DNA from: Lentisphaerota bacterium
Lineage (GTDB): Bacteria > Verrucomicrobiota > Lentisphaeria > Victivallales > Victivallaceae
Assembly (NCBI GenBank): GCA_015061745.1
Contig: SUWB01000001.1
Span: 124,001 to 188,000 of the forward strand
Direction of reading: 5' to 3'
DNA: 64,000 nucleotides
Part shown: positions 28,724-49,307 of the stretch, piece by piece
How positions within the stretch are numbered: position 1 is the stretch's first letter
Layout of the letters: each line of letters begins with the position of its first letter
Translations under genes and position numbers: made by a program
Notes under the pieces: generated by a model
What the model was told of the DNA's origin: nothing
What the model saw: only the letters and a program-made list of their open reading frames with translations
Database searches by the model: none

Positions 28724-28743
28724 TCGTGCTTTTAAGCAAAAAT

Positions 28744-28780
28744 GCACTGTCCGGCAAAAAACGGACAGTGCGTTTTTTAT
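28744..28780. terminator. Bidirectional terminator between rsmA and the restriction gene
   Basis: Ten-bp stem GCACTGTCCG (28744-28753) with CGGACAGTGC (28762-28771), loop GCAAAAAA, T tract right and A tract left. It ends rsmA transcripts and, on the other strand, the restriction-modification operon. Confidence 0.9.
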
Positions 28781-28849: not shown

Positions 28850-29536
28850 TTAAGATTTATTTTCCTCACCGTACAGTTCGGAAAGAATATCCTCTGCTGT
28901 GCGAGTTGAAGCTTCAATACACAGTTTTTTTATTGTACGCTTTCGATATTCGACAGGATCATACTGATAACAGCCAACACACCCGATTTTTTCATCATAA
29001 TGCTCATCTCCCTCGTAAAATGCATAGGGATTTCCGGCAATATTCTTAGCATTCCAACGCAAGTTTGTTTCCTTGCATCTCTTGCAAATTTGCCGCTTTG
29101 CATCGTTGGCAGCCTTGCACAGCGGCTGAAAATCCGCCGAACGCTGCTCGGCAGGATTTGAAACCCGCGGATCATTTTTCCTGCCGTCTTTGTGATCGAC
29201 TTCGATTTGAGTATTGACACTGGATCCCTGCACGCCAAGCATAACGCAGTTGCGTTCTCTTATATCCCTAGCGATATCCGGCCTGATTGTCTGAGAAAAT
29301 CCATTTTGCTCATTAAATCCATTCAAGCGGATTGCTATAATTCCTTGCCCCTTTCGTTGTCGTTGAACCTCAATTACATATTGTTTTTCCAATGCACTGC
29401 CCTTACGCCCCCAACTGAAACCGTTTCCGAGCTTCAACGCCGCATATTCTCCGCTAAACTCTGAAACATCGACCCAACGGCTGATTCCTTGGCTGTCAGG
29501 CTTTGCAAGTTCAATAAAAAGTTCTTTCTTTGACAT
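28850..29536 (-). CDS. HNH (beta-beta-alpha-Me) type II restriction endonuclease, NlaIII/IceA-like
   Basis: A 228-residue protein. The HNH core shows VDHKDGRKND (Asp114-His115, Asn121) and QPLCKAANDAKRQ (Asn144). It is followed by two zinc-type pairs, CKRC (151/154) and CVGC (186/189). N-terminal LAKPDSQGISRWV and LKLGNGFSW together with the length recall NlaIII and H. pylori IceA1 (PF05315), which cleave CATG. This is from memory and not a database result. The start is ATG 29536: GGAGA lies 7 bp upstream, while an upstream ATG at 29566 would overlap the methyltransferase. The gene begins 2 bp after the methyltransferase stop, so the two are cotranscribed with the methyltransferase first. Nuclease call likely; CATG specificity inferred. 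Confidence 0.75.
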   Translation of the reverse strand: MSKKELFIELAKPDSQGISRWVDVSEFSGEYAALKLGNGFSWGRKGSALEKQYVIEVQRQRKGQGIIAIRLNGFNEQNGFSQTIRPDIARDIRERNCVMLGVQGSSVNTQIEVDHKDGRKNDPRVSNPAEQRSADFQPLCKAANDAKRQICKRCKETNLRWNAKNIAGNPYAFYEGDEHYDEKIGCVGCYQYDPVEYRKRTIKKLCIEASTRTAEDILSELYGEENKS

Positions 29537-29538
29537 AA

Positions 29539-30810
29539 TTATTTCTCCAATTCTTCTGCAGAACAACGAATCGCCAAACCGATCGCTTTTCCCAAGTATG
29601 GCGGAACAGCATTACCGATTTGCACCAACTGCTTATTTTTCTTACCCATAAAAATAAAATCATCAGGGAAGGACTGTAATCTTGCCATCTCCCGTGCAGT
29701 GAGTACACGCGGCAAACGGGGATGGATATTCACTCCCCCATGATTTTCTTTTATCGTACAAGACGGTGCATTCCATGGGCACTTTTTCCATGCGTCTGAA
29801 TACCCCTTATACAAACTTTCCCCCTCTTTCAATTGCTGCATCCGTTCGACCATATCCGGACGATGTTTGGTGGGCTGGTGATTGAATCCTTCATCCTCAG
29901 GATGTGTCATAAGATCAGCAATTGCCTCCCCGGTTGTAATATACGCTTCAGGCAAAAGGATCGGCTGAGGATGATAATTCTTTTTTCCGATGCGGTTACC
30001 GATAAATATGACCCTTTCCCGGGTCTGCGGGGTATAGTAATCTGCCGCACAAAGAGTTGTAACGTTGATGGAATAACCGATTTTTTTGAAATCCGCTATA
30101 ATCTTTTGCTCAACAGCTCCATTGAGCATACTGCGAAGACCTTTGACATTTTCACATAAAACAAAGTCCGGCTGCAGATTTTGTACTATCTCAATCAATT
30201 CCAGATACAATGAGTTACGGGGATCATCAACAATGCGGTTCCCTGCCATACTGAATCCCTGACAGGGAAATCCTCCTGCAACGACATTCAAATTTCTGCC
30301 GTTCAATTGAGCTTGAACTGTATCATAAAACTTTTGCTTATTTTCTGCAAGTTTTATGTCTCCGTTAATAAACGGATGCTCAAAATTTCTTTCATATGTC
30401 ATTCCGGCTTCATCAAACCAATCCAATCCGCAGATACCGGATAAACCGGCCATTTCCAATCCTTTGCTCAACCCTCCGGCTCCACAAAACAAATCCACAT
30501 AGGTCAACGAGGATTTTCCGGGATTTTCCCAATATTTACTGATATCCACCCAATTGACATCATCAACTTTTCGTACCTGAGAGCGTTTACTTTTTGAGGG
30601 CAGTATCGGCTCTCCGAAAAGATCATATTCAATATCTTCAAGTTCAACATCCAAAGAAAAATTTTCCAATGCCTTTCGGGAAATAGAATAACTGGAACCA
30701 TTTTTCACTGCAGCAAGCACGCCACTGGCGACAAATCGGCGCACAGCTTTTTGACTCAAATCAAGCTGTTCAGCCACTTCTGCAATGGAGTAAAATTCAT
30801 TCTGTTCCAT
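29539..30810 (-). CDS. DNA (cytosine-5)-methyltransferase with N-terminal HTH domain
   Basis: A 423-residue C5 methyltransferase with the motifs in order: motif I VDLFCGAGGLSKG (105-117), catalytic GFPCQGFS (Cys183), ENVKG (220-224), PQTRERVIF (261-269), a short target-recognition region (about 275-365), and LTAREMARLQSFP and QIGNAVPP (370-404). Residues 1-55 (SIAEVAEQLDLSQKAVRRFVASG) form a MerR/excisionase-like helix-turn-helix, a possible autoregulator. It protects DNA against the nuclease encoded next. Oddity: three of the four CATG sites seen in the whole window lie in its recognition-region codons (Ala340-Trp, Pro345-Trp, His357-Gly), unlike host-type genes. This suggests recent acquisition. 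M.NlaIII is an N6-adenine enzyme, so this pairing differs from it. Confidence 0.95.
   Translation of the reverse strand: MEQNEFYSIAEVAEQLDLSQKAVRRFVASGVLAAVKNGSSYSISRKALENFSLDVELEDIEYDLFGEPILPSKSKRSQVRKVDDVNWVDISKYWENPGKSSLTYVDLFCGAGGLSKGLEMAGLSGICGLDWFDEAGMTYERNFEHPFINGDIKLAENKQKFYDTVQAQLNGRNLNVVAGGFPCQGFSMAGNRIVDDPRNSLYLELIEIVQNLQPDFVLCENVKGLRSMLNGAVEQKIIADFKKIGYSINVTTLCAADYYTPQTRERVIFIGNRIGKKNYHPQPILLPEAYITTGEAIADLMTHPEDEGFNHQPTKHRPDMVERMQQLKEGESLYKGYSDAWKKCPWNAPSCTIKENHGGVNIHPRLPRVLTAREMARLQSFPDDFIFMGKKNKQLVQIGNAVPPYLGKAIGLAIRCSAEELEK
29739..29792. other. Cluster of three CATG sites in a window otherwise almost free of them
   Basis: CATG at 29739-29742, 29774-29777 and 29789-29792, all inside the methyltransferase gene and about 200-260 bp upstream of the nuclease start on the minus strand. 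The only other copy seen is at 49218-49221 in gap. Confidence 0.9.
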
Positions 30811-30843: not shown

Positions 30844-30872
30844 AATATATCATTGGCAACCTATCTTTTCAA
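30844..30872 (-). promoter_or_regulatory. Promoter of the restriction-modification operon
   Basis: On the minus strand TTGAAA (30872-30867), 17-bp spacer, TATATT (30849-30844); the methyltransferase starts about 34 bp downstream. It has the same form as host promoters. Confidence 0.75.

Positions 30873-48263: not shown

Positions 48264-49307
<1,044 letters not shown>

What the first reader, a model, noticed from the sequence alone, without database searches (positions are those of the whole stretch)
29739..29792. Three of four CATG sites cluster in 54 bp of the methyltransferase gene, just upstream of the nuclease gene
The sites fall in recognition-region codons where synonymous changes would remove them (Ala-Trp GCA TGG, Pro-Trp CCA TGG, His-Gly CAT GGG). 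Two readings are possible. The gene may be newly acquired and not yet purged. Alternatively the sites may be kept because their methylation state controls nuclease expression or copy number of the operon, as methylation-sensitive control is known in other restriction-modification systems.
Basis: partly seen in the sequence, partly recalled or inferred. Interest (0 to 1): 0.7.

Follow-up and report, generated by a model that had tools for sequence, protein, structure and literature searches.

The report
Leftover CATG sites in young methylase
A bacterium that has erased almost every CATG from its sampled DNA still has three in the gene for its own CATG-protecting enzyme, most likely because that gene arrived recently and its protein sequence favours CATG there, not because the sites act as a switch.

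Summary
The window has 4 CATG against about 170-296 expected. Three lie at 29739, 29774 and 29789 in a C5-methyltransferase gene, directly upstream of an ICEA/NlaIII-family nuclease gene. In sampled DNA of this genome (538 kb of 3.1 Mb) CATG is 39 against 1436 expected; the three closest sister species show no avoidance.

The regulatory reading fails. The gene holds what codon choice predicts (3 against 3.0). The 54 bp is the most CATG-permissive stretch of the gene. At the three positions homologues carry CATG no more often than codon usage predicts (3, 3, 8 of 14 against 4.5, 4.0, 8.5), and a CATG-avoiding genome with the same gene pair has none in its methyltransferase.

The recent-arrival reading is supported. 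A gene purged like the rest would hold 0.07 sites, and the operon is A+T-rich for this genome.

A puzzle remains: the methyltransferase looks younger than the purge, so an earlier CATG-specific system, or an earlier version of this one, probably did the purging. The pair is a variant: an NlaIII-family nuclease with a UpaP162-type C5 methyltransferase.

The parts
29539..30810 (-). C5-cytosine DNA methyltransferase gene, 423 aa, predicted CATG-specific; holds the three CATG sites
   Evidence: Pfam PF00145 E 2e-65; 68-76% identical to C5 methyltransferases beside ICEA nucleases in 7 loci; 49% identical to the partner of an UpaP162-family enzyme in M. hyorhinis
30658..30795 (-). N-terminal helix-turn-helix (residues 6-51), possible autoregulatory domain
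   Evidence: PF12728 E 1e-7; TIGR01764
28850..29536 (-). ICEA/NlaIII-family HNH-type restriction nuclease gene, 228 aa, second gene of the operon
   Evidence: PF05315 E 2.6e-99; DHKDGRKND segment invariant in 12 aligned relatives; the HNH label is recalled, not from a call
29719..29811 (-). segment coding for YKGYSDAWKKCPWN..SCTIKENHGGVNIHP, invariant or nearly so in the subfamily; contains the most CATG-permissive 54 nt of the gene
29739..29742 (-). CATG site in His357-Gly358 (CAT GGG)
29774..29777 (-). CATG site in Pro345-Trp346 (CCA TGG)
29789..29792 (-). CATG site in Ala340-Trp341 (GCA TGG)
30844..30872 (-). promoter-like site upstream of the methyltransferase gene, likely for the whole operon
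   Evidence: TTGAAA-17-TATATT, 10 of 12 with TG; the number of such sites in the region does not exceed shuffles
29268..29271 (.). CTAG inside the nuclease gene, a word almost absent from this genome (weak sign of foreign origin)
   Evidence: 2 CTAG in the window, 7 in 474 kb of the rest sampled
28738..28777 (.). terminator-like hairpin (scored on both strands) between ksgA and the nuclease gene

Best explanation
[quoted passage not shown] The genome has been selected to lose CATG, as expected where a CATG nuclease sometimes cuts imperfectly methylated sites. The three sites in the methyltransferase gene are unpurged residue: the gene (probably the whole cassette) came in by horizontal transfer after most of the purge, and has its neutral complement of CATG. 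They cluster because the protein segment there (Ala-Trp, Pro-Trp, Ser-Cys, His-Gly) is the most CATG-permissive in the gene. They have no special function. Shown: the counts, frames, homologies, the codon tests and the absence of avoidance in sister species. Inferred: CATG specificity of both enzymes, horizontal arrival, the role of the HTH, and an earlier CATG-specific system (or earlier allele of this one) that did most of the purging.
For: Methyltransferase gene: 3 sites against 3.03 (gene's codons shuffled), 2.95 (cassette usage) or 3.60 (sister usage); 0.068 expected if purged like the rest, P(>=3) 5e-5. Genome: 39 CATG in 538 kb against 1436; outside three stretches (L005, L012, L016) 9 against 1264, three of those nine being these sites. 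All reading frames are purged (13/302, 8/180, 11/999) and His is CAT before G in 1.6% against 48-52% before other bases, so synonymous changes of every kind removed sites. Sister species G016/G018/G020: 767 against 731. Sites not conserved: 3, 3, 8 of 14 homologues against 4.5, 4.0, 8.5 from codon usage. L065, same gene pair, locus purged (2 sites, 26 expected), methyltransferase 0 sites against 3.8 (P 0.008). Operon G+C 0.432, 1.9th percentile of 998 windows. CATG specificity: ICEA relatives are NlaIII homologues (PMC13340068, passages); the methyltransferase relative in M. hyorhinis is adjacent to an UpaP162-family enzyme, a family that cuts CATG and whose C5-type partner blocks both UpaP162 and NlaIII (PMC6191088, abstract and passages).
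Against: The nuclease gene has only 2 permissive positions (expected 0.5, observed 0), so it cannot date the nuclease. The tetranucleotide profile of the operon is only mildly unusual (92nd percentile). With sister codon usage the clustering is rarer (0.15%) and absence outside the 54 bp is P 0.027, which would fit partial purging or a mosaic gene. No donor closer than about 76% protein identity was found, and no syntenic empty site: in sister species the order is kept only up to ksgA. No other ICEA nuclease, C5 or D12 methyltransferase was found in this 91.6%-complete genome, so the supposed predecessor is not seen.
Confidence: 0.75

Rival explanations
1. The three sites are kept by selection: methylation at 29739-29792 controls an internal nuclease promoter or the operon's expression (CfrBI-like logic).
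For: Three sites in a gene where 0.07 are expected if purged like the rest; promoter-methylation control exists in CfrBI, AhdI and LlaDII (PMC12707154, passages). L048 also has three CATG within 54 bp of this segment, two of them at the same positions.
Against: Occurrence at the three positions in 14 homologues matches codon usage; L065, L115, L116, L117 and L118 have none of the three; 8 of the 11 loci with at most 0.5 CATG per kb of flank have no CATG in the R-M genes (32 of 40 loci examined); no promoter-like site on the coding strand near the sites; the known cases have their sites in promoters, and no CATG lies between the operon and its upstream neighbour.
Confidence: 0.05
2. The system is old here and purged the genome itself; only the methyltransferase gene, or its 3' part, was replaced recently by recombination with an unpurged allele.
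For: Only one CATG-type cassette is found in the genome. No CATG in the rest of the gene (P 0.03-0.17) or in the nuclease gene.
Against: The nuclease has too few permissive positions to be informative (0.5 expected); the nuclease also carries a CTAG, rare in this genome, and the whole operon is A+T-rich; no recombination boundary could be shown for lack of close homologues.
Confidence: 0.2
3. Chance: sites arise continually by mutation and these three are recent.
For: A few isolated CATG occur elsewhere, e.g. in the GAPDH gene at 49218.
Against: Outside the three dense stretches and this gene, 6 CATG in 478 kb; three in one gene is far beyond that rate.
Confidence: 0.01

Closest known systems
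NlaIII / HpyI (iceA1-hpyIM) CATG restriction-modification systems
   Same: The nuclease belongs to the same family (PF05315 ICEA) with relatives about 60% identical in 40 loci.
   Different: There the partner is a D12-class N6-adenine methyltransferase (32 of 40 loci with a DPPY enzyme nearby; family checked on three). Here it is a C5 methyltransferase, it comes first in the operon, and the extra HPPY-motif methyltransferase-like gene next to most relatives is missing.
UpaP162 system of Ureaplasma parvum and relatives in Mycoplasma
   Same: The C5-type methyltransferase is homologous along its full length (49% to the M. hyorhinis protein), with the same segment SD.WKK.PWN.PSCTIKENHGGVNIHP; order methyltransferase then nuclease.
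   Different: The nucleases are not similar (best local match E 0.10) and ours does not match NF045956.
R-M systems controlled by methylation of their own promoter (CfrBI, AhdI, LlaDII)
   Same: Own recognition sites lie inside the operon.
   Different: Here the sites are in coding sequence, not conserved, and not at a recognisable promoter.
Recognition-site avoidance by long-lived Type II systems (Rusinov et al. 2015, PMC4687349)
   Same: Strong avoidance, across the genome, of the site of a resident system.
   Different: Here the resident methyltransferase gene itself is not purged, so the avoidance looks older than the gene.

Membership tests
NlaIII/ICEA-family Type II R-M | nuclease of PF05315 | tested here: met
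   E 2.6e-99, 331.6 bits against cut-off 24
NlaIII/ICEA-family Type II R-M | partner methyltransferase of the D12 N6-adenine class | tested here: not met
   partner is PF00145 C5; no D12 match in the genome
NlaIII/ICEA-family Type II R-M | cleaves CATG | tested here: inconclusive
   inferred from homology and the loss of CATG; no biochemistry possible
UpaP162-type R-M | C5-type methyltransferase of this subfamily | tested here: met
   49% identity over the full length to the partner of the M. hyorhinis UpaP162-family enzyme
UpaP162-type R-M | nuclease matching NF045956 | tested here: not met
   no match at E <= 0.001; no BLASTP similarity
Methylation-controlled R-M (CfrBI-like) | recognition site in a promoter of the system | tested here: not met
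   no CATG between 30811 and 30917; sites are coding; no promoter-like site near them on the minus strand
Methylation-controlled R-M (CfrBI-like) | sites conserved beyond coding constraint | tested here: not met
   3, 3, 8 of 14 against 4.5, 4.0, 8.5
Methylation-controlled R-M (CfrBI-like) | expression changes with methylation | not testable with these tools
   needs transcript mapping or reporters

The most novel reading that the evidence does not exclude
CATG-specific systems succeeded one another in this lineage: an earlier one erased CATG from the genome, and the present cassette, an NlaIII-family nuclease with a UpaP162-type C5 methyltransferase, replaced it later. The CATG content of each gene then works as a clock for how long that stretch has lived under CATG restriction, and nuclease and methyltransferase modules are exchanged freely so long as they share the recognition sequence.
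Probability: 0.4. Interest if true: 0.5.

Novelty: new variant of a known kind. Interest (0 to 1): 0.36.

Why it matters
The site cluster has an ordinary explanation, but it rests on a very clean natural experiment: one species has lost over 99% of CATG outside a few stretches of the sample while its closest relatives have lost none. That makes CATG content a marker of recent arrival, and here it marks the methyltransferase gene itself. The pairing also shows that nucleases of one family use two unrelated methyltransferases, and that one methyltransferase family serves two unrelated nucleases, apparently around the same recognition sequence.

Tried and rejected
Regulatory sites: rejected on the codon-usage test across 14 homologues and on L065. 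A CATG about 32-45 bp upstream of the nuclease start in several relatives looked like a conserved operator; it is a His codon (CAT or CAC) in the FKHEY motif that ends the neighbouring HPPY gene, and the two codons are mixed, so I dropped it.

Purging by m5C deamination alone: rejected as the whole cause, because frames where C-to-T is not synonymous are purged too (0.043 and 0.045, against 0.011 where it is synonymous). A contribution is possible: the last frame is purged more, and the T/(A+G) ratio before ATG is 0.93 against 0.71 in sister species.

A second CATG system in the genome: one ICEA, one C5, no D12, one N6_N4 methyltransferase with a DPPY motif. The genome is incomplete, so this is not proof of absence.

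Independent origin of the C5-ICEA pairing here: in one tree of 40 nucleases the seven C5-paired ones from bacterial genomes form a supported clade without ours (98/95). In a second tree of 36 rows ours joins the five of them used there, with support 14/0. Left undecided; branches are long.

Association of the missing HPPY gene with strong purging: medians 0.08 (n=8) against 0.51 (n=32), Mann-Whitney P 0.056 (L071 left out because its contig ends in the gene). Suggestive only, not corrected for kinship.

An empty site in sister species: synteny is kept up to ksgA and then lost. An operator palindrome upstream of the operon: only one weak overlapping repeat.

Full report
Observation. CATG is found four times in the window (29739, 29774, 29789, 49218) where shuffles give 296 and a Markov model 171; it is the most depleted palindromic 4-mer. 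The first three lie in a 423-aa ORF on the minus strand, a C5 methyltransferase with an N-terminal helix-turn-helix. It is followed by a 228-aa ICEA-family nuclease (PF05315) whose ATG at 29536 stands just after the methyltransferase stop codon at 29539.

Scale of the avoidance. I sampled 538,376 bases of this genome, window included: 39 CATG against 1436 expected. Thirty of the 39 lie in three 20-kb stretches (L005, L012, L016); elsewhere there are 9 against 1264, and three of those nine are the sites in question. L012 and L016 hold sugar-catabolism and uncharacterised genes that could be recent arrivals; L005 holds housekeeping genes (rpoC, PEP carboxykinase). The three closest sister species (G016, G018, G020; KsgA 85-89% identical) have 767 against 731. 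In 19 stretches from genus relatives, ratios run from 0.31 to 1.17, with three below 0.5 (a twentieth, without readable bases, was dropped). So avoidance of this strength is specific to this lineage. It affects all three reading frames (obs/exp 0.043, 0.045, 0.011), and His is CAT before a G in 1.6% of cases against 48-52% before other bases. That is selection against the word, not only a mutational bias.

Which enzymes. ICEA relatives (40 loci) usually sit beside a DPPY methyltransferase (32 of 40; the three I checked in Pfam are D12 N6-adenine class). Seven sit beside a C5 enzyme 68-76% identical to ours; one of the 40 has neither. In those seven the order is nuclease then methyltransferase; ours is reversed. 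The best plasmid-collection match to our methyltransferase is a M. hyorhinis protein (49% over the full length) next to an UpaP162-family enzyme, and a second one in M. cynos is arranged alike. UpaP162 cuts CATG, and its C5-type partner protects DNA from UpaP162 and from NlaIII (PMC6191088, abstract and passages read; its authors argue from blocking tests that the mark is m6A, which sits badly with the C5 family). So CATG specificity of our methyltransferase is a well-grounded inference, not a test. Loci with ICEA and a DPPY-type or unassigned partner have 352 CATG against 851 over 33 loci. Among the nine C5-ICEA cases only ours and L065 show strong avoidance; the others are at 0.73-1.09, which fits recent arrival there.

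Are the sites kept? Shuffling codons of the gene within amino acids gives 3.03 sites on average against 3 observed. The 54 bp codes for Ala-Trp, Pro-Trp, Ser-Cys and His-Gly, four of the gene's 12 permissive positions; none of the 1218 windows has a higher expectation. L048 has three CATG in 54 bp of the same segment, by Ala-Trp, Ser-Cys and His-Gly. Across 14 homologues, ours included, the three positions carry CATG 3, 3 and 8 times against 4.5, 4.0 and 8.5 expected from each gene's codon usage (these include near-identical L056/L057/L060, and L119 lacks the Ala). L065 has none of the three, and no CATG at all in its methyltransferase gene (P 0.008); L117 and L118 also have none in theirs. 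Among 11 loci with at most 0.5 CATG per kb of flank, 8 have none in the R-M genes; L044, L055 and L072 have 2, 1 and 3 (32 of 40 loci, nuclease ends approximate). So retention is no rule, though it occurs elsewhere. The promoter scan found no site for the nuclease near the sites, and no more promoter-like sites than in shuffles overall.

Is the gene young? If it were purged like the rest it would hold 0.068 sites (P of three or more 5e-5; the rates used include these sites, so this is conservative). The operon has G+C 0.432, the 1.9th percentile of this genome, and a CTAG, a word found 9 times in 538 kb. ICEA is over its cut-off in 1 of 34 genomes of the genus and 2 of 387 of the phylum. Relatives of the methyltransferase also occur on viral contigs (L114-L119), one beside an ICEA nuclease (L114), and their tree mixes cellular and viral copies. 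This points to horizontal arrival.

What follows. A methyltransferase gene younger than the purge cannot have started it. Either an earlier CATG-specific system was replaced, or an earlier allele of this system was overwritten. Rusinov et al. 2015 (PMC4687349, abstract and sections 18-19 read) report that avoidance can outlive a lost system. I found no second CATG system in this 91.6%-complete genome.

Verdict. The system is a new variant: an NlaIII-family nuclease with a UpaP162-type C5 methyltransferase. I found no paper describing this pairing, within the open-licence library only.

Noticed in passing
L043-L082, about 800 bp upstream of the nuclease (e.g. L043:4194-4982, L056:4189-4998): Most ICEA nuclease cassettes carry a third gene: a methyltransferase-like protein of about 265 aa with motif order FxGSGTT then HPPY (permuted N6_N4 type). 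33 of 40 loci match it; the window's cassette and L064, L065, L067, L070, L072, L074, L077 lack it.
   Followed up: partly
L064, L065, L067, L077 and the window: Several of the most CATG-purged genomes lack the HPPY gene; an accessory methyltransferase might lower the self-cutting that drives avoidance (P 0.056).
   Followed up: partly
L012:900-10500 and L016:1-15200: CATG-rich stretches in an otherwise CATG-poor genome, holding sugar-catabolism genes (GH88, GH106) and long proteins without Pfam match; candidates for recent horizontal arrivals.
   Followed up: partly
window 49218: The fourth CATG lies in the GAPDH-like gene (48264-49262, minus), near its start, at Arg-Met (gene name from recall of the sequence, no family search).
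   Followed up: no
L020 (G001), L037 (G030), L038 (G031): Three other species of the genus show partial CATG avoidance (0.31-0.45) without an ICEA nuclease over the cut-off, perhaps traces of other or lost CATG systems.
   Followed up: no
L115-L119 (viral contigs): Relatives of the C5 CATG methyltransferase on viral contigs without an ICEA nuclease; CATG is at 0.30-0.63 of expectation there, as if phages carry it for protection.
   Followed up: partly
window and genus relatives: CTAG is almost absent in the window's genome and in most genus relatives sampled, independent of the CATG story.
   Followed up: no
L217 (G029:C21:1764-2819): One genus relative has a distant match to the NlaIII-type D12 methyltransferase alignment (E 1.3e-45).
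   Followed up: no
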